A stretch of 22,682 bases of DNA, taken from positions 1 through 22,682 of the IMG/VR virus record IMGVR_UViG_3300009605_000161. One strand, 5' to 3'. Below are positions 7,399-20,738 of the stretch, piece after piece. Numbering within the stretch: position 1 is the first letter of the stretch; each line of letters starts with the position of its first letter. Position numbers and translations under genes: made by a program. The notes below the pieces were generated by a model. That model had not been told where the DNA came from and did not search any database. It was given only the letters and a program-made list of their open reading frames with translations. The stretch is from a virus.

Positions 7399-8550
7399 AT
7401 GAGTAAGAAAAAGTGGACAATTTATGGTGCTATTGCCGCAGCCGTTCTGGTTGCTGCAATTGCGACACCCGTACTTGCAGATGAGCCTTCATATGAAGAC
7501 CTCACCGCTCGTTTGGATGCCGCAGAAGCACGAATTGCAGAATTGAACAAGTCTGAACCATCAGAGATGGATATCGCCAGAGCAAATGCCACTAAGGCAC
7601 TTGTTCGTGATGTTCTTGCTGATGCAGATGCTCGTTCAATGATGCAAGGCAACGGAAGCCCTGTTACAGTAAATGTACACGGATTTGTACAATCTCGCTA
7701 CACCTATAGTGGTGGTGGTGATGACGAAGCCAATCACGGTTTCGGTCTTCCCCGCGCCCATCTTGAACTTTCTGGAGACCTCTATAATTGGGGTTATGTA
7801 GTAAGTGGACAGTGGAGCGAAGGAGGAGAGTTTGACCTTTTGGATGCTTATGCAGAAGGTGGACTCTTTGGTGGAAATGTCCGTGTAGGACAATTCAAAG
7901 CACCGTTTATGCGTGAGGTACTTGTCTATCAGGCAGATACTCTTATGACAGAGCGTTCAATCGTGTCCAACCAGTTTGGTCAGGGTCGTTCGCAAGGTGT
8001 TCAGTATAGTCGTGATTTTGGTGTGGTAGATTTTGCTGCCGCTTACACCGATGGTTTCGATACTGCCAATGGCGCAGGAGTTCAGAACGGTCAGGCATTT
8101 ACTGCCCGTGCTGGATTCGATGTTGCTGATTGGTGGAATGTGGGTGCTGCCGTTTCATATAACGATTTGGTAGACACCGACTACACCACCTACACCCTTG
8201 ATACTAATGTATCATTCGGTGGAGGTCTTGACTTGACTGCTGCCTATGTTGCAACTAGCGGTGACGCTGGAGACAATTGGGGAACAACAGTTCAAGCAGG
8301 GTATCATTGCATGGATAACCTACAAGGTTTCGTTGCATATGAGTATGGTGAATTAGAAGATGTTTCAGAGAATCTTAGCATTGCAACTGTTGGTGCCAAT
8401 TATTGGTTCAACGATAATGTCAAGTGGACAACCGAATTAGGTTATGCACTAAATGGCATTAATGGTGCTTGGGATTTGGGAGAAACAGGTTGGCGTGCTG
8501 GTGACAGTGGCGAATATGTTATTCGTACCCAACTTCAACTTACTTTCTGA
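7399..8550 (+). CDS. Outer-membrane beta-barrel porin (phosphate-selective porin O/P-like)
   Basis: Predicted secreted 383-residue porin. Residues 1-27 are a clear signal peptide (basic MSKKK, hydrophobic core, cleavage after VLA). A short coiled coil follows (DLTARLDAAEARIAELNKSE), as in trimeric porins with N-terminal coils. From about residue 90 the chain is alternating amphipathic strands starting VNVHGFVQSRYTYSGG, rich in aromatic, Gly and Asp residues. It ends in QLQLTF, with the terminal Phe expected for BAM-directed outer-membrane proteins. The pattern resembles the OprP/OprO family, but substrate cannot be read. It sits in a cassette with its own sigma70-type promoter and terminator, unlike the phage genes around it, which suggests a moron-like acquisition from a bacterium. 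Confidence 0.85.
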   Translation: MSKKKWTIYGAIAAAVLVAAIATPVLADEPSYEDLTARLDAAEARIAELNKSEPSEMDIARANATKALVRDVLADADARSMMQGNGSPVTVNVHGFVQSRYTYSGGGDDEANHGFGLPRAHLELSGDLYNWGYVVSGQWSEGGEFDLLDAYAEGGLFGGNVRVGQFKAPFMREVLVYQADTLMTERSIVSNQFGQGRSQGVQYSRDFGVVDFAAAYTDGFDTANGAGVQNGQAFTARAGFDVADWWNVGAAVSYNDLVDTDYTTYTLDTNVSFGGGLDLTAAYVATSGDAGDNWGTTVQAGYHCMDNLQGFVAYEYGELEDVSENLSIATVGANYWFNDNVKWTTELGYALNGINGAWDLGETGWRAGDSGEYVIRTQLQLTF

Positions 8551-11456: not shown

Positions 11457-12224
11457 ATGGTACTTAGGAGAACTGCATATTTCTTAGCAACTTTGTTATG
11501 TTTAGTAAGTTGCACTTCAACTCTACCTTTACCTACACCTCCCCAACAACAAAACCCAATACCAGAAGTCTTTGATCCTTTTGTTGCCACAAACAATGAA
11601 AACGATCCCTATCCTTTCGTTGGTTCTATTCATAGAGAAAATGGAAGTTTAGTAGGCGGCGGAGTTCTTATTGCACCCGATGTAGTTCTAACTGCTGGAC
11701 ATTGTATCGATAATAAAAAAATAGACTCAGTATATTTTGGAGAAATGTGTGTTCCTGTTTCCTCTACTCTTCTTCATCCTGAATATGAAATGTATGGAAG
11801 ACCTGTAAATGATATCGGCATTATTTTTCTAGAATATCCAGTAGATATTAACCCCATTTCCCTACATAATAATAGAGTATTGTGGAGATTCAGTGATATA
11901 ACAGTTATCGGATATTCGTTCGGATATAAAAAATACAGCAAGCCAAGTGTATTTCAATATTACGGAACAATACTTGAAGACATAAACGAAATAAAGTTTC
12001 TACCAAGACGGGCAACAATCTGGTTTGGTGATTCTGGCGGCGCAGTAATTGCTACACTAGAAGGAGAAGAAAGGTTAGTAGGAATAATAACATCATTCTT
12101 GACAGATGAATTTGGAATAGTCGAGTGTTCGGCTACACGAATTAAATTTTATAGAGGGTGGATTGAGGAGGTTCTAAATGAACAAGGATTGGACGGACGG
12201 GGTAGCCGAATGGGTGAACAATAA
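11457..12224 (+). CDS. Trypsin-like serine protease, predicted lipoprotein
   Basis: A 255-residue S1-family protease with a full catalytic triad: H82 in TAGHC, D119 in NDIGIIFL, and S193 in GDSGGAV. The N-terminus MVLRRTAYFLATLLCLVSCT is a lipoprotein signal with lipobox LVSC (lipidated Cys19), followed by a Pro/Gln-rich linker (LPLPTPPQQQNP). The mature enzyme should therefore be anchored in the host envelope, facing the periplasm or surface. The barrel spans about 50-235. A late promoter box lies just upstream, so it is probably made late. Possible roles are cutting host envelope proteins before lysis or blocking receptors; phage origin of such an enzyme is unusual. Confidence 0.88.
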   Translation: MVLRRTAYFLATLLCLVSCTSTLPLPTPPQQQNPIPEVFDPFVATNNENDPYPFVGSIHRENGSLVGGGVLIAPDVVLTAGHCIDNKKIDSVYFGEMCVPVSSTLLHPEYEMYGRPVNDIGIIFLEYPVDINPISLHNNRVLWRFSDITVIGYSFGYKKYSKPSVFQYYGTILEDINEIKFLPRRATIWFGDSGGAVIATLEGEERLVGIITSFLTDEFGIVECSATRIKFYRGWIEEVLNEQGLDGRGSRMGEQ

Positions 12225-13839: not shown

Positions 13840-14900
13840 TTTTTATCTCCGTGAATTAAATAGGCCATTACACCTGTTGTTTTGTCTTGGATAACAATTG
13901 GTGCGCCAGGATTCTTATGGGCATAATCACGAATCTCTTGGTTATCAATGTTTTCCATATTTAATTTTCTGTTCCATCGTTCATATCGTTTTCTGCCGTG
14001 CATACAAGTATGATAATCGTCGCTGTTTAATTCAAATACTTCAGCACCAGCAAACTTTTTACGCTTTTTCTTTTTCTTTTTTCCTAGTATCGGGTCATAT
14101 CCCTGAACTGGACCTTCCCCACCAAAATGCGGAGACATTCCACCACCTACTGCATTCGTGGGCGTGGATTCATCAACGGATTCTTTGATTTTACCATACT
14201 GTGCAATTCTCTTTGCATCTCTATACATGTGCATATCAACAGAATCAACCACTTCATACCGATACTTAATTTTCCCACCACCATGATGATGTGTGTGCTG
14301 AACAACATAGTATGTTCTATCAGGACTTTGATTTGCAAGTTTCTGTGCAGATTTCTTTACTGGGTTTATTTCATCGCTTGCGAGAGTCAATGCTTCATCC
14401 AGTTCAACAGATTCATTTACAAGTTTACCTCTGCTCTTTTTCATATATTTCTTGATACCAGCACGCCACTTGAATTGAACACCCGTAACTGTTACTTTGT
14501 TCCCAACCCGATCACCTATACCGATAGAAGAATTTTCAATATCATAATCAAATTGCGCCGCTTTTCGATCATCAGGGAATTCAAATGTCAAGGTTTCCAT
14601 CGCCCTTTCTTCTACTTCTTCGCCTGGCGTATCTTCACGATAAGTATCGTCTAGTTCGTCGGTTGCTTCCTCGCCCGCACCACCTTCTTCAATTAAGAAT
14701 GGACGAATCTGAGAATCGTGCATTTCAACCTGCGTGCCATCTTGAAACTTTACTTTATAGACAGTATCATAACGACTAGTTCCACCAATAGAAACAACCT
14801 TGACAATTCTAGCCCTACGGTCACCCATCTGGATTGATTTGCCAAGCAAAATAGTTTCTATGATTGGCAGTTCTGTACTAAATCGTTTGAATTTTTTCAT
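13836..14900 (-). CDS. T4-like phage structural-type protein with small beta domain
   Basis: A 354-residue protein starting MKKFKRFSTELPIIETIL. Residues about 18-70 form a small beta domain (VYKVKFQDGTQVEMHDSQI) that recalls the one in the 8661-9521 protein, followed by an acidic linker. The middle holds a His/Gly-rich strand region (YYVVQHTHHHGGGKIKYRYE). A loop, TPTNAVGGGMSPHFGGEGP, of a kind I associate with T4-like structural proteins follows. After a Lys run (GKKKKKKRKK), the C-terminal domain has AGAEVFELNSDDYHTC and GRKRYERW. Head or core assembly is likely, but the exact role is unknown. It starts 23 bases inside the preceding gene, with AAGG upstream. Confidence 0.72.
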   Translation of the reverse strand: MKKFKRFSTELPIIETILLGKSIQMGDRRARIVKVVSIGGTSRYDTVYKVKFQDGTQVEMHDSQIRPFLIEEGGAGEEATDELDDTYREDTPGEEVEERAMETLTFEFPDDRKAAQFDYDIENSSIGIGDRVGNKVTVTGVQFKWRAGIKKYMKKSRGKLVNESVELDEALTLASDEINPVKKSAQKLANQSPDRTYYVVQHTHHHGGGKIKYRYEVVDSVDMHMYRDAKRIAQYGKIKESVDESTPTNAVGGGMSPHFGGEGPVQGYDPILGKKKKKKRKKFAGAEVFELNSDDYHTCMHGRKRYERWNRKLNMENIDNQEIRDYAHKNPGAPIVIQDKTTGVMAYLIHGDKK

Positions 14901-16169: not shown

Positions 16170-18233
16170 TTATATTTCTAACAATTCAAAGCCAAAATTG
16201 ACATCTATTGATTCCAACTGTCGTTGGGGTTTCCTTTGTTCTGATAAAGTAAATGTCTTATTCACATTCACGCTATAATTAAGTGTTTCTAAAAATCTCT
16301 TACCTATAAGAACCAAGTATGTGTTGTCATCTCGGTCGCTTAAGTTAAAGAGAACATCTTTGTATTCTTTCTTGCCAAACTTTATATCAAATTTGACTAG
16401 ATATCGTTCTTCCCATTGGTCTGAACCGATATTAATTTTTTGAGTTTGTACGATTGGTTTAGTAAACTTCTTTCCAAGAATACTAAAGGACACATTCTTG
16501 CCCTTTGCTTTTACATTATCTGAATGAATAGAATTTACTGAACCATTCCCTGTATCTACTTTGGCTTTTAATTTACCAACACCCTTGACTGTGATGTATT
16601 CTACATAACCAATTTCCTTGGAAGTAAATTTCCAATTCTCTTTGTTAAGAATATGGTCGAGAACATAACCAACCAACTCTTCGCCGCTAAGTTCTTTTCC
16701 TTCGTGGCCTGGATGATATCCCATATACGGTGCGGCGCCAGAACCTGGCGAACCATTCACCTCTAGAATATAATGTTTTCCGTTGTGTGTGATATGGTCA
16801 ACACCTGCATAGTAACAACCAGATATCTTATATGCTTTTCTAATAAGGTCTTTTTCTTCTTGGCTCAACTTGTAGGGAGCAGTGTCATTACCCAATGCTT
16901 TATTGGTTCTAAATTCTTTCCCACCAGAAGATTTGATTCTTTTTACTGAAGCACAAATCTTACCATCTAGGACAAGGGTACGGACATCGTGTTTAATCTC
17001 CATATATTCCTGAAGGATAATCTCTGCTTCGTGCTTCCACAAGGACTGTAGAACGGATTTAAGGGACTCATAGGACTCAATTTTCGAAACTCCGATACCT
17101 TCAGCACCTGTAATCGTTTTTATGATAACAGGGAACTTGCCCCCGATCTTTTCAAGAGCAATGTCAATCGAATCTTCGTTATTCACAAAGGCTGTTCGTG
17201 GAGATGAAATTTGATTTTGTTCAAGTGCAAGTGCAGTAACCATTTTGTTCTGGCAAAATTGCATAGACTCAAGACTGTTTACCATAAACATTCCAACTTC
17301 CTGTAGCGTTTTTACCATACCCGTACCAGCATTATCAAGAATAGCCCCGCCGCGAACCAACGCAACGGTGTTGTCTATTTTTAGATTAATATTCTTTCCG
17401 TCGCCGCCATAATTATGAATAGTAATTTCGTTATCTTCCATATCCTTGTCTACAATAAATGCGTGGTCAGTATGCACGGCAAAGAAAGATACACCTTTCT
17501 TTTTACATACTTTTGCCAATCTTTCAATGGTATCAGACTTCTCATTATCTGTAGAAGATTTGGTAATAGCAATAACCGTTGGAAGGCTTTTGTCTTTTGC
17601 TTCCTCTAAACTAATCAGTCTATTCCAATCTTCTTCTAGTGATTCTCGCACACCCATTGCAGTTCTCAATTTTTTGTATAGTTGTTTTGCAATTATTTTG
17701 TTTCCTACGCCCAATTCAAAACTTTCATAGTCTCCCGCAACTGCGGCCGCTCTCATCTTTGAAGCAGACATTCCTTCGACTCCTTCTGCATCGGGGTCTC
17801 TCTGTCCTGCACTTCTTACTTCAAAGTGGTCAAATTGATATCCATCTGGTCCAACATATTTTGAAATACTTTTTTCTAATTCTGCTACTCTATCACCACC
17901 AACGACAAGAATAACTTTTTTATATCCTTCATCACTTAATTTCTGCATCATATAAAACGGATTTATTACAGACCTATCGTCTATAACATTTACTTTCCTG
18001 CCAAATATCTTTCTCATAAAACTAATTTTGTCTCTGGGCTTTAAAGGGTCTCTATTGTCGCCTGCCTTTCGACTTGGGTAAATACGATGCTCTGCTCTTT
18101 CCCTTCGGGCATTGTCAACCACCGCATCAACTAGTTTTTGATGACCAATTGTAGGTGGTTGAAAGCGCCCGAAGGTTACAACGATAGCCTTCGTTTTGTC
18201 TTCGTTCAGAAAATCTCTGACCGATTTACTCAT
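16170..18233 (-). CDS. Triple fusion: nucleotidyltransferase + RimK-like ATP-grasp ligase + RimB-like aspartic protease
   Basis: A 687-residue enzyme in three parts. (1) About 15-195: HIGH-superfamily nucleotidyltransferase, with VVTFGRFQPPTIGH (TIGH 28-31) and GMSASKMRA (164-172). (2) About 215-530: RimK-type ATP-grasp amino-acid ligase, with nucleotide loop IIKTITGAEGIGV (K372), LQEYMEIKHDVRTLV, YYAGVDHI and metal residues in ILEVNGSPG (E491, N493). (3) About 545-675: RimB/DUF785-like retropepsin fold, with KAKVDTG (D560) and LIGKRFLE. RimK adds glutamates to a protein C-terminus (ribosomal S6 in E. coli) and RimB acts with it; here both sit in one chain. The N-terminus MSKSVRDFLNEDK resembles a T4 capsid-targeting peptide. 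ATGA overlap with the upstream small gene. Substrates unknown. Confidence 0.87.
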   Translation of the reverse strand: MSKSVRDFLNEDKTKAIVVTFGRFQPPTIGHQKLVDAVVDNARRERAEHRIYPSRKAGDNRDPLKPRDKISFMRKIFGRKVNVIDDRSVINPFYMMQKLSDEGYKKVILVVGGDRVAELEKSISKYVGPDGYQFDHFEVRSAGQRDPDAEGVEGMSASKMRAAAVAGDYESFELGVGNKIIAKQLYKKLRTAMGVRESLEEDWNRLISLEEAKDKSLPTVIAITKSSTDNEKSDTIERLAKVCKKKGVSFFAVHTDHAFIVDKDMEDNEITIHNYGGDGKNINLKIDNTVALVRGGAILDNAGTGMVKTLQEVGMFMVNSLESMQFCQNKMVTALALEQNQISSPRTAFVNNEDSIDIALEKIGGKFPVIIKTITGAEGIGVSKIESYESLKSVLQSLWKHEAEIILQEYMEIKHDVRTLVLDGKICASVKRIKSSGGKEFRTNKALGNDTAPYKLSQEEKDLIRKAYKISGCYYAGVDHITHNGKHYILEVNGSPGSGAAPYMGYHPGHEGKELSGEELVGYVLDHILNKENWKFTSKEIGYVEYITVKGVGKLKAKVDTGNGSVNSIHSDNVKAKGKNVSFSILGKKFTKPIVQTQKINIGSDQWEERYLVKFDIKFGKKEYKDVLFNLSDRDDNTYLVLIGKRFLETLNYSVNVNKTFTLSEQRKPQRQLESIDVNFGFELLEI

Positions 18234-18346
18234 CTATTCCAAGGTGCTTTTGCTTTAATCCAATTCCATAGTGGAACGCCAATCAAGGCTCCGCCCACGA
18301 AACATAGAACGCTCCACCACACTGTACCTAAAACTGCTAATGTCAT
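18230..18346 (-). CDS. 38-residue single-helix membrane protein
   Basis: Starts ATG 18346 with AAGGAG just upstream and ends in an ATGA overlap with the triple-fusion gene. The peptide is one membrane helix (LAVLGTVWWSVLCFVGGALI) followed by a tryptophan/lysine-rich end (PLWNWIKAKAPWNR), giving an N-out or C-in topology by the positive-inside rule. Perfect coupling signals on both sides make it a credible gene despite its size. Function unknown; it could anchor or regulate a neighbouring protein. Confidence 0.75.
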   Translation of the reverse strand: MTLAVLGTVWWSVLCFVGGALIGVPLWNWIKAKAPWNR

Positions 18347-18361: not shown

Positions 18362-19516
18362 TTAAACTGTTTTTAATTGCTGTAACCTTTTCTCTGGTAT
18401 ATTTAGACCAGATATTATGGTATACAACCTTAAACTATCTTTTCCATCCTCATAAATACCCCGATGCAGAGTTGCATTTGGACATAACGAAGATAGCGTA
18501 TCGAATCCATACGATAAACTATCCATTAATCCTGGCGTATTTTCCATAATATCCTTACCGCCAATTGCCACACAGGCGGCAACACTAGAGTCTGAAAGTT
18601 CTACATCAGTAAGAAGTGTCTTTTCAAGATTTGTCTTGATTGCACTTGATACCTTTTGTTCGTCATCAAACTCTTTTAATTTCGCTACACCCATAACCAT
18701 TACGCCACCACACCGCAAGACGCTGGAATAGTCTGTTGGGTCAAATGATGTATATGGTGATGGGTTGTTTGTGAGTACATTGAATACATGGAATAGACCA
18801 GAGATGGTATTATTAACTGTTGGCCAGAATTGTTTAACCGTTAATCCTTTATACATTCTTTCAATCTTGGAATTGTCAAGAATGATAAGAGGAGAAATGG
18901 TTTTTTCTTTTGCACATCCACCAACAACGCTCAACACTTCATGTGCATTTTTTGACACTACTGGTGAATTTGCTTCGCCTCTGGTTGGCAAAGACATAAC
19001 TACTCCAACTCGTTTTTCTGGATCGTCGTGCCCAATATACTTCATATATTTCTTGGCAGTTTCAATTAAAACGAGGACTGAACCACTTCCGCTGCCACCA
19101 CCAGCACCGACACAGACAAAAAGATGATCGACATTACTACCATAGACTCTTCGCATAAGATCGAATACATTTTGTTTATATTTGTTTGCCGCTTCATTGC
19201 CTTTATCCATATCCTTTCCTGCACCCTGTTCACCCACATCAAATAACATTTTTTGTTCGGCAGGCAATTCAAGAGTATCTAAATCGTGACGAGAAGTATT
19301 TACTGCAATACATTTTTTATATCCTCGTTCATAAAATGCTTTTGCAATTCTGCCACCACCTTGCCCAGAACCAATCCAAGCGAAGGTTTGAGAACCACCA
19401 GATTCGTCTTCTACCGCAGTTTCTTCATCTTCTGGAATTTCATAATCTTCCAAATCAATGTCTGGTATTTCTAAATCTGGAATTTCTGGAATTTGATTTT
19501 CTAATTCTTCGCTCAT
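18362..19516 (-). CDS. FtsZ/tubulin-superfamily GTPase
   Basis: A 384-residue filament-forming GTPase candidate. Residues 1-42 are an acidic tail of repeated EIPD-like units (EIPDLEIPDIDLEDYEIPED). The GTPase begins at about 45 (FAWIGSGQGGGRIAKAF). The tubulin signature is GAGGGSGSGS at 137-146. The T7 loop that completes the neighbour's active site reads FDPTD at 258-262 with both aspartates (D259, D262), so hydrolysis should work. Jumbo phages use the tubulin PhuZ to position DNA and capsids; this protein is not obviously that family and looks at least as close to FtsZ. AAGGA precedes the start. It lies between the ligase-like gene and the triple fusion. Confidence 0.85.
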   Translation of the reverse strand: MSEELENQIPEIPDLEIPDIDLEDYEIPEDEETAVEDESGGSQTFAWIGSGQGGGRIAKAFYERGYKKCIAVNTSRHDLDTLELPAEQKMLFDVGEQGAGKDMDKGNEAANKYKQNVFDLMRRVYGSNVDHLFVCVGAGGGSGSGSVLVLIETAKKYMKYIGHDDPEKRVGVVMSLPTRGEANSPVVSKNAHEVLSVVGGCAKEKTISPLIILDNSKIERMYKGLTVKQFWPTVNNTISGLFHVFNVLTNNPSPYTSFDPTDYSSVLRCGGVMVMGVAKLKEFDDEQKVSSAIKTNLEKTLLTDVELSDSSVAACVAIGGKDIMENTPGLMDSLSYGFDTLSSLCPNATLHRGIYEDGKDSLRLYTIISGLNIPEKRLQQLKTV

Positions 19517-19529
19517 TTATTTTTCCTTT

Positions 19530-20738
19530 TTATTTGTTCCAATTCTTAGGAACAGTAAAGTTTGCTTTACTAAATTCTAATCTATCTACTAATTTTAATA
19601 CTGTGTTACTTACTCTATCCACAGCAACAAAACCTTCTGGTGAAGTTACTCTAAATCCGTCAGCCGTCCTGATAAAAGTTCCTATTTCTTTTACCTGTTC
19701 AAGTTTCCGAATAATAAATACCTTCGCTTCCGCCAAGGCGGCGTGCAACGCAAAAATAGAATCCAGTTTTGTAGAATTCTTGCTTAAATATGCAAGTAAA
19801 TCTTTTTTGATTGTTTCTTTTCGCTCCTTTGCACTATCCGTCTTTAGCGTATCTATGGCTGCCTGCATTTTTGAGTCAATATAATTAATGAACCCAGCCG
19901 CAGAACCAACCTCTCCATCTCCCTGACGGATAAGGGCATTACCATAGATTTTTACCTCTGAAATAATCATAGGCTTACCACGCAGTGTATCAAGATATCT
20001 TTTTACACCGCCTGCTTGTCTCTTAATTTTTGCAATCAAAGAATTAATTGTGGACGATTCTGTACTTGTAAATGTTGCTGTACCCGAAGTGTCTCGAAAA
20101 TCGGCATCCTGAAACCAGACATCCCTAGTCTTTGCGAGAGAACCAACTCTAGGGTTGAAGGATGCTTTTAATCCTTTAATTGTCTTTCCTGTATATTTTG
20201 TGTGCCATACTACTCCTATCTTTGCATTAGTAATTGATTTCGCTGTATCTGAACCAGCGGGTACTGCATAGGTAATCGTATTCGGGGTAAAAGTAAGATA
20301 ATTCTCTCCGTCGATTTTTGTCGATGATGTATCATCTGTAAACATAATATCGCCTTGAAGAATTCCTCTAATACCCAATTTACCAAGGTACTTTAAAGCA
20401 ACTTTTAACTTGCTTGCTAATACAGCGGCGTGTCCGTGATTTTTGTCGATATCTGCATTCGTATAGTTGACTTTTGGGGTAACATTAAAAAGAGATTTTG
20501 TTGCCACAAAAAACTTTTTGGTTTCGGGGTGTATTCCTGCAAACACCGCAGGTGCGCCATCCCATTTAACGGTAACATTTACTCCTGATGATGCATTTCC
20601 ATGAAGCATTTCAGCCACTGATTCTAAAAAAGATATGGCTGTAGCAACACCTGAAGAACCTTCGTTCCACACAGTATCTTCAAGATGTTCCATATGAACA
20701 TTCTTCGATTCAGCAATAAACGTAGTAAATACCTTCAT
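19530..20738 (-). CDS. Ligase-like covalent nucleotidyltransferase candidate; conserved marine T4-like phage protein
   Basis: A 402-residue protein that I recognise as a conserved marine T4-like phage family without known function. In it I see motifs of the RNA/DNA ligase superfamily: KWDG at 58-61 (motif I, lysine nucleotidylation site) followed by APAVFAG; RGILQGDIMF at 124-133 (motif III-like); EGFVAV at 368-373 (motif IV-like); and LKLVDR at 381-386 (motif V-like). Their order is right, but the spacing between III and IV is long, with a helical insert near 285-355. The N-terminus MKVFTTFIAESK resembles the T4 internal-protein capsid-targeting peptide (MKTYQEFIAEA). First gene of the minus-strand operon. 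The ligase reading needs structure prediction. Confidence 0.68.
   Translation of the reverse strand: MKVFTTFIAESKNVHMEHLEDTVWNEGSSGVATAISFLESVAEMLHGNASSGVNVTVKWDGAPAVFAGIHPETKKFFVATKSLFNVTPKVNYTNADIDKNHGHAAVLASKLKVALKYLGKLGIRGILQGDIMFTDDTSSTKIDGENYLTFTPNTITYAVPAGSDTAKSITNAKIGVVWHTKYTGKTIKGLKASFNPRVGSLAKTRDVWFQDADFRDTSGTATFTSTESSTINSLIAKIKRQAGGVKRYLDTLRGKPMIISEVKIYGNALIRQGDGEVGSAAGFINYIDSKMQAAIDTLKTDSAKERKETIKKDLLAYLSKNSTKLDSIFALHAALAEAKVFIIRKLEQVKEIGTFIRTADGFRVTSPEGFVAVDRVSNTVLKLVDRLEFSKANFTVPKNWNK

What the first reader, a model, noticed from the sequence alone, without database searches (positions are those of the whole stretch)
16170..18233. Phage nucleotidyltransferase-RimK-RimB triple fusion
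One chain holds a HIGH-type nucleotidyltransferase, an ATP-grasp amino-acid ligase of the RimK type and a RimB-like aspartic protease, each with its key motifs visible. RimK and RimB are known partners in tagging ribosomal protein S6 with glutamate; having writer and trimmer in one polypeptide, plus a nucleotide-activating domain, suggests a self-contained modification machine, perhaps acting on host ribosomes or on a phage protein.
Basis: partly seen in the sequence, partly recalled or inferred. Interest (0 to 1): 0.9.

Follow-up and report, generated by a model that had tools for sequence, protein, structure and literature searches.

The report
Phage head-packaged glutamate-tagging fusion enzyme
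A marine T4-like phage encodes one protein that joins an NMNAT-like enzyme, a glutamate-adding enzyme and a glutamate-trimming protease behind a signal that should pack it into the virus head, so the phage may inject a ready-made protein-tagging kit into its host.

Summary
The 687-aa ORF at 16170-18233 (-) is an NMNAT-like nucleotidyltransferase, a RimK-type ATP-grasp ligase and a RimB/RloA-type retropepsin, all with catalytic residues. The same order recurs in phage contigs down to about 35% identity, probably from one fusion, under purifying selection. RimK-RimB fusions are not new: phage RimK with a C-terminal RimB-like domain was reported in 2008, and bacterial RimBK (reverse order) in 2025.

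Residues 1-12 (MSKSVRDFLNED) resemble the T4 internal-protein capsid-targeting sequence (MKTYQEFIAEA). The same type of leader stands on unfused phage RimK-RimB (37 of 39 distinct leaders, shuffled mean 0.16), on unfused NTases, on the neighbouring DUF6267 protein and on a SAM lyase in a relative. A prohead-protease-like LxE site also lies in the NTase-RimK linker (13 of 13 fusions). Published mass spectrometry finds homologous NTases in cyanophage virions and a RimK-RimB homologue in YerA41 particles.

Best explanation: a head-packaged precursor, cut by the prohead protease and injected with the DNA, that adds and trims glutamate tags on a host protein, with a separate NMNAT-like activity. 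Target, cleavage and activity are untested. New variant of known kinds.

The parts
16170..18233 (-). Complete ORF, 687 aa: leader - NTase - linker - RimK-type ATP-grasp - RimB-like retropepsin - tail
   Evidence: full-length homologues
18198..18233 (-). Residues 1-12 MSKSVRDFLNED: capsid-targeting-like leader, disordered in the model
   Evidence: T4 IPII/IPIII MKTYQEFIAEA; leader statistics; pLDDT < 50
17643..18191 (-). Residues 15-197: HIGH-superfamily nucleotidyltransferase, NMNAT-like (TIGH 28-31, S54, PL 63-64, K69, GGDR 112-115, MSASKMR 155-161)
17586..17642 (-). Residues 198-216: disordered linker with LEEA (209-212), a prohead-protease-like site
   Evidence: 13 of 13 fusions keep such a site; shuffled mean 3.9, max 10 in 5000
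16638..17585 (-). Residues 217-532: RimK-type ATP-grasp ligase (K330, K372, E409, R418, R442, N444, D479, E491, N493)
16242..16622 (-). Residues 538-664: RimB/RloA-like retropepsin (D560-T-G, K558, R610, R634, VLIG 641-644)
16170..16241 (-). Residues 665-687 and stop: disordered C-terminal tail
   Evidence: conserved among close relatives
19530..20738 (-). DUF6267/phrog_455 protein with leader MKVFTTFIAES; normally directly upstream of the NTase gene
18230..18346 (-). 38-codon membrane-peptide-like ORF whose TGA overlaps the ATG of the fusion gene (ATGA), suggesting coupled translation
   Evidence: read from the sequence printed

Best explanation
The protein is a precursor made late in infection. 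Its N-terminal leader takes it into the prohead core. The T4-type prohead protease removes the leader after FLNE and may cut the NTase-RimK linker after LEE, so the virion would carry an NMNAT-like NTase and a RimK-RimB enzyme, either separate or still joined. Both would enter the host with the DNA. RimK would then add glutamates, by ATP/acyl-phosphate chemistry, to the C-terminus or a side chain of a host protein (S6 is the precedent, not a shown target), and the RimB domain, as a dimer, would trim these tails. The NTase probably supports NAD or a related dinucleotide independently. Shown here: domains, residues, conservation, leader and linker motifs, and a prohead protease in a near relative. 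Shown elsewhere for homologues only: presence in virions. Inferred: late expression, cleavage, injection, glutamate specificity, target.
For: (1) Leader. T4 IPII and IPIII start MKTYQEFIAEA. The pattern [FYLIV]xx[FYW][ILVM]xE fits 37 of 39 distinct leaders of unfused phage RimK-RimB (shuffled mean 0.16, max 3 of 5000) and 16 of 50 NTase leaders (mean 0.09, max 2). The looser [FLIMVY]xE[ASGDETQR] fits 40 of 50 NTase leaders (mean 9.5, max 21 of 2000). Unrelated proteins share the leader type: NTase, RimK-RimB, DUF6267 and, in relative G002, a SAM lyase (PF23780, 2.3e-11). (2) All 13 fusions keep [FLIMVY]xE[AGSQED] within 22 residues before RimK (mean 3.9, max 10 of 5000); leader and linker are disordered in the model. 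(3) The S77 prohead protease is in G002 (134.8 kb, carries the fusion), Mosig, P-RSM1, Melnitz and YerA41. (4) Published MS: the NTase homologue ORF91 of S-SCSM1 (41% identical, own leader MKSFLQFLKEA) is a virion protein in the corresponding gene region (PMC9602691); cytidylyltransferase in S-CREM2 virions (PMC10665884); the YerA41 RimK-RimB is deposited as 'structural protein'. (5) Polyglutamate-binding residues conserved. (6) One fusion origin (87/82) and purifying selection.
Against: No experiment on this protein. The leader argument is by resemblance; only 16 of 50 NTase leaders fit the strict T4-derived pattern. The leader patterns were chosen after seeing some sequences, and related leaders are not independent. 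MS of CsCl-purified virions can carry contaminants, as the S-CREM2 authors say, and the YerA41 particle list includes many replication enzymes. The T4-type late promoter TATAAATA upstream of DUF6267 is only weakly enriched (6 of 61 vs about 1.2) and absent there in the window. The RimK score is just under the TIGR00768 cut-off (136.4 vs 143.4) and far under the S6-ligase equivalog (72 vs 331). Unfused RimK-RimB sits beside regA and the replication genes, which would also suit a mid-infection enzyme.
Confidence: 0.55

Rival explanations
1. An ordinary cytoplasmic enzyme made during infection: RimK-RimB re-tunes host translation by tagging S6 (as Monier et al. 2008 suggested for phage rimK); the leader is an N-terminal extension without packaging function.
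For: Unfused RimK-RimB is next to RegA, the translational repressor, in 72 of 80 loci; Mosig and Melnitz encode a bS21 homologue; phage rimK beside regA was reported in 2008.
Against: The same leader type on unrelated proteins, the LxE site kept in the linker, and virion MS of homologues. In the window and its relatives the fusion lies outside the regA region and G002 has no bS21 hit.
Confidence: 0.2
2. The enzyme works inside the prohead on phage proteins: RimK tags head or core proteins with glutamate and the retropepsin trims or matures them during assembly.
For: The leader would place it in the core; the neighbouring genes correspond to a region annotated as virion proteins in S-SCSM1; retropepsins elsewhere mature virus precursors (family knowledge).
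Against: ATP-grasp ligation needs ATP and free glutamate; RimB/RloA enzymes are specific for polyglutamate (PMC11957791, PMC12239564); many related phages carry only the NTase, so it is not a general assembly factor.
Confidence: 0.12
3. A small-molecule pathway: the NTase makes a nucleotide cofactor and the RimK domain adds glutamate(s) to it, as CofF and MptN do, or makes free poly-alpha-glutamate.
For: RimK-family cofactor ligases score above the S6-ligase model (MptN 112.9, CofF 89 vs 72 bits); RimK makes free polyglutamate with RimB stimulation (PMC11957791).
Against: The retropepsin with conserved polyglutamate-gripping residues points to peptide-linked glutamate; NTase and RimK-RimB occur apart in many phages and are joined by a flexible linker.
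Confidence: 0.1

Closest known systems
Bacterial RimBK hybrid (Desulfotalea psychrophila; Little et al. 2025, PMC11957791)
   Same: RimB-like retropepsin and RimK in one chain; protease activity on polyglutamylated RpsF shown
   Different: RimB is N-terminal there and C-terminal here; no NTase; no capsid-targeting leader described
Marine phage RimK with C-terminal DUF785 (Monier et al. 2008, PMC2530865); Pelagibacter phage Mosig, Yersinia phage YerA41
   Same: RimK then RimB-like domain in one phage protein; about 30% identity over 98-99% of the RimK-RimB part
   Different: No NTase fused; in marine phages usually beside regA; Monier et al. do not discuss packaging in the passages read
Cyanophage virion NTase (phrog_395/3041; S-SCSM1 ORF91, S-CREM2 ORF154)
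   Same: 41-51% identity over the NTase; leader of the same type; MS shows it in virions; same gene region
   Different: No RimK-RimB; often extra N- or C-terminal segments
T4 internal head proteins (IPII, IPIII, gpAlt)
   Same: About 10-residue N-terminal leader (IPII, IPIII) ending in an LxE/IxE-like site; prohead protease removes an N-terminal peptide; delivered with the DNA
   Different: T4 IPs are small proteins (IPI an inhibitor of a restriction nuclease) and Alt is an ADP-ribosyltransferase; no ATP-grasp or retropepsin
RloABC system of Pseudomonas (PMC12239564)
   Same: ATP-grasp plus retropepsin; polyglutamate-binding residues map onto the phage domain
   Different: RloA is secreted and separate; RloB membrane partner missing here

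Membership tests
RimK-type ATP-grasp ligases | ATP-grasp fold and catalytic residues | tested here: met
   PF08443 110 vs cut-off 21 bits; Foldseek to RimK 7qys E 1e-20, TM 0.82; K372, E491, N493 invariant
RimK-type ATP-grasp ligases | Curated NCBIfam cut-off for the RimK family (TIGR00768) | tested here: not met
   136.4 vs 143.4 bits, just short
RimK-type ATP-grasp ligases | Glutamate-binding residues of RimK (R64, R189, N262) | tested here: met
   Map to R294 (one L among 17), R418, N493 (PMC10092738)
S6--L-glutamate ligase (RimK equivalog) | Equivalog cut-off (NF007764) | tested here: not met
   72.1 vs 331 bits
S6--L-glutamate ligase (RimK equivalog) | Glutamylates S6 | not testable with these tools
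   Needs enzyme assay or MS
RimB/RloA retropepsins | PF05618 domain with DTG/DSG catalytic motif | tested here: met
   30.2 vs 27 bits; 9g58 profile match 1.5e-12; D560 and G562 invariant where the domain is present
RimB/RloA retropepsins | Polyglutamate-binding basic residues (RloA K46, R114, R137) | tested here: met
   K558 (K/R in all fusions, L in YerA41), R610 and R634 invariant (PMC12239564)
RimB equivalog | NCBIfam RimB cut-off (NF052261) | tested here: not met
   23.5 vs 200 bits
Bacterial RimBK hybrid | RimB domain at the N-terminus of RimK | tested here: not met
   Order here is NTase-RimK-RimB
NMNAT-like nucleotidyltransferase | HxGH and (I)SxTxxR-type motifs with family match | tested here: inconclusive
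   TIGH and MSASKMR present; NMNAT models match up to 18 of 19 members but weakly (best 1.2e-5); window protein below the PF01467 cut-off
NMNAT-like nucleotidyltransferase | Uses NMN | not testable with these tools
   Needs assay
T4-type capsid-targeted internal protein | N-terminal targeting sequence | tested here: met
   By pattern, against shuffles
T4-type capsid-targeted internal protein | Prohead protease in the same phage | tested here: met
   In relative G002 (L002 contig), S77 E 2e-42; the window itself is a fragment
T4-type capsid-targeted internal protein | Found in virions, leader removed | not testable with these tools
   Published MS for homologues only

The most novel reading that the evidence does not exclude
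Many marine T4-like phages inject a reversible protein-polyglutamylation system (writer plus eraser) from the head at the moment of infection; in one lineage it is fused, as a prohead-protease-cleaved polyprotein, to an NMNAT-like enzyme, so one packaging signal loads several effectors.
Probability: 0.4. Interest if true: 0.85.

Novelty: new variant of a known kind. Interest (0 to 1): 0.68.

Why it matters
Phage RimK homologues have been known since 2008 with no timing or target. A packaging leader would place the enzyme in the host before any phage gene is expressed, narrowing the search to early host targets and making the question testable in cultured phages (Mosig, Melnitz). The leader also gives a way to list candidate injected effectors in marine T4-like phages, including DUF6267, NTase fusions with SET or HNH modules, and SAM lyase.

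Tried and rejected
TubZ-like neighbour as a glutamylation target (by analogy with tubulin ligases): rejected, because the gene is absent from L001-L004 and L007, which keep the fusion. DNA modification, prompted by the modified DNA of YerA41: no supporting gene link found, and a polyglutamate protease does not fit. Ribosome link through phage bS21: present in Mosig and Melnitz, no hit in G002 or the other contigs that carry the fusion, some of which are fragments. DUF6267 as a ligase-fold enzyme (KWDGAPA, EGFV, KLVDR): no significant PDB fold or profile match, kept as a hint only. Late promoter TATAAATA: weak. Fusion by simple neighbour joining: in L062 the unfused order is RimK-RimB then NTase, opposite to the fusion. 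GTDB genomes: no relative found. Separate fold searches of the NTase and RimB thirds were not possible (model cap), so these rest on profiles and on Foldseek hits to phage NTases.

Full report
OBSERVATION. The window is a 22.7 kb virus record carrying UvsX, gp41, gp61, ThyX and a class II RNR, i.e. part of a T4-like phage. The ORF at 16170-18233 on the minus strand encodes 687 aa. Profiles divide it into an NTase (phrog_3041/395, 4e-51 and 2e-50), a RimK-type ATP-grasp (PF08443 1e-31, TIGR00768 1e-39) and a RimB/RloA-like retropepsin (PF05618 4.9e-7, RloA3 model 4.8e-10). An AlphaFold2 model from 12 sequences has mean pLDDT 79 and pTM 0.51, with disorder at 1-12, 198-215 and 665-687. Its best PDB matches are RimK structures (7qys, E 1e-20, target TM 0.82), and phage NTases match at target TM up to 0.89. 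A profile of 13 retropepsin domains finds the solved RloA proteins 9g58/9g59 (1.5e-12) and 2pma (3e-11).

CONSERVATION. Seven IMG/VR loci hold the full protein at 73-100% identity. A wider scan gave eight more contigs with the same domain order (L054-L060, L072) and one, L061, with NTase-RimK only. Catalytic and ligand residues are kept: K372, R418, R442, N444, D479, E491 and N493 in the ligase, D560, R610 and R634 in the protease. In the NTase, G22, R23, G30 and H31 are kept and the first HIGH position is T or H. A tree of 27 RimK domains puts all fused forms on one branch (87/82), consistent with one old fusion; several long branches make this provisional. dN/dS against four relatives is well below 1 in each domain, though synonymous sites are near saturation in several comparisons. 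No relative was found in GTDB genome contigs.

CHEMISTRY. The RloA residues that contact polyglutamate (K46, R114, R137; R114A and R137A had the strongest effects among those tested, PMC12239564) map through the alignment onto K558, R610 and R634. RimK glutamate contacts R64, R189 and N262 (PMC10092738) map through the alignment onto R294, R418 and N493. The likely activity is therefore glutamate ligation and polyglutamate trimming, but the protein is not an S6-ligase equivalog or a RimB equivalog by curated cut-offs. The NTase profile matches NMNAT models in up to 18 of 19 members, weakly (best 1.2e-5). Published virion studies also call such proteins NMNAT-like.

LEADER. T4 IPII and IPIII begin MKTYQEFIAEA. 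The window protein begins MSKSVRDFLNED, its neighbour DUF6267 MKVFTTFIAES, and the G002 fusion MKKVFDFLNEA. A second scan found 80 loci with RimK-RimB relatives, mostly about 460-aa proteins not fused to the NTase, 72 of them beside RegA. Their leaders (MKAPKFREFISEA and the like) fit a T4-derived pattern in 37 of 39 distinct cases (shuffled mean 0.16, max 3 of 5000); NTase leaders fit it in 16 of 50 (mean 0.09, max 2) and a looser pattern in 40 of 50 (mean 9.5, max 21). These patterns were set after viewing some of the sequences and the leaders are related, so the shuffles overstate certainty. What carries weight is that unrelated protein families (NTase, RimK-RimB, DUF6267, SAM lyase) share the leader type. 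The S77 prohead protease is present in G002, Mosig, P-RSM1, Melnitz and YerA41. In all 13 fusions an LxE-like site lies in the 22 residues before the RimK fold (shuffled mean 3.9, max 10), with spacing like that between leader and fold in unfused RimK-RimB. It looks like a remnant of the second leader and a possible cut site; this is inference.

VIRION EVIDENCE ELSEWHERE. In S-SCSM1 the corresponding gene region between the primase/helicase gene and gp61-nrdA contains ORF89, 90, 91, 92, 93, 95 and 97, all annotated as virion proteins; ORF91 is the NTase homologue (41% identity) with leader MKSFLQFLKEA (PMC9602691). S-CREM2 virions also contain a cytidylyltransferase and a SAM hydrolase (PMC10665884); its authors warn of possible co-purification. 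The YerA41 RimK-RimB is deposited as 'structural protein', and the paper lists 'ribosomal protein modification protein' with an asterisk in its expression table; I did not see the asterisk defined.

MODULARITY. Other NTase-headed proteins carry SET and HNH (L066), DUF5824 (L073, L088, L104, L118, L124) or DUF3140 (L056) matches. A DUF6267 gene is found in most NTase loci, normally directly upstream. Melnitz has NTase and RimK as separate genes, P-RSM1 only the NTase, Mosig only RimK-RimB.

WHAT IS KNOWN. Monier et al. (2008) reported marine phage RimK with a C-terminal DUF785 beside regA. Little et al. (2025) characterised bacterial RimBK, with RimB N-terminal, as a polyglutamate protease without S6 glutamylation activity observed in their assay. 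Papers found with the searches used here do not describe the NTase-RimK-RimB fusion or a capsid-targeting leader on RimK; subscription literature was not searched.

VERDICT. A real and old three-domain phage protein. The most likely reading is a head-packaged, injected precursor with reversible glutamate-tagging activity and an NMNAT-like part. Packaging is moderately well supported by sequence and by MS of homologues; substrate and benefit are open.

Noticed in passing
window 18362-19516 (-): TubZ/FtsZ-like tubulin gene (PF00091 5e-11, TubZ-like C-terminal domain 6.5e-6) inserted between DUF6267 and the fusion gene; absent from L001-L004 and L007.
   Followed up: partly
window 19530-20738 (-): DUF6267 has invariant or near-invariant KWDGAPA, QGD, EGFV and KLVDR stretches that recall nucleotidyl-ligase motifs I, III, IV and V; no significant fold match.
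   Followed up: partly
L043:13103-13714 (-), contig G002: SAM lyase (PF23780, 2.3e-11) with a capsid-targeting-like leader MSKQYKQFINES: a candidate injected anti-restriction enzyme.
   Followed up: partly
L066:4851-8801 (+): NTase-headed 1317-aa phage protein with SET (1.8e-8) and HNH (1.3e-4, under cut-off) matches: another possible protein-modifying fusion of the same family.
   Followed up: no
L044:12545-14035 and 14043-14570 (+), contig G002: Two adjacent proteins of unknown function (496 and 175 aa) that both start with capsid-targeting-like leaders (MKSFKQYIIEG, MKSFKEYITEV).
   Followed up: partly
window 11457-12224 (+): Trypsin-like protease (PF00089 5e-12) with a lipoprotein-like signal (LLCLVSC).
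   Followed up: no
window 7399-8550 (+): 383-aa protein with a signal peptide and a C-terminus ending in aromatic Phe, possibly an outer-membrane protein; no Pfam family above cut-off.
   Followed up: no
window 18230-18346 (-): 38-codon membrane-peptide-like ORF overlapping the start of the fusion gene by ATGA.
   Followed up: no
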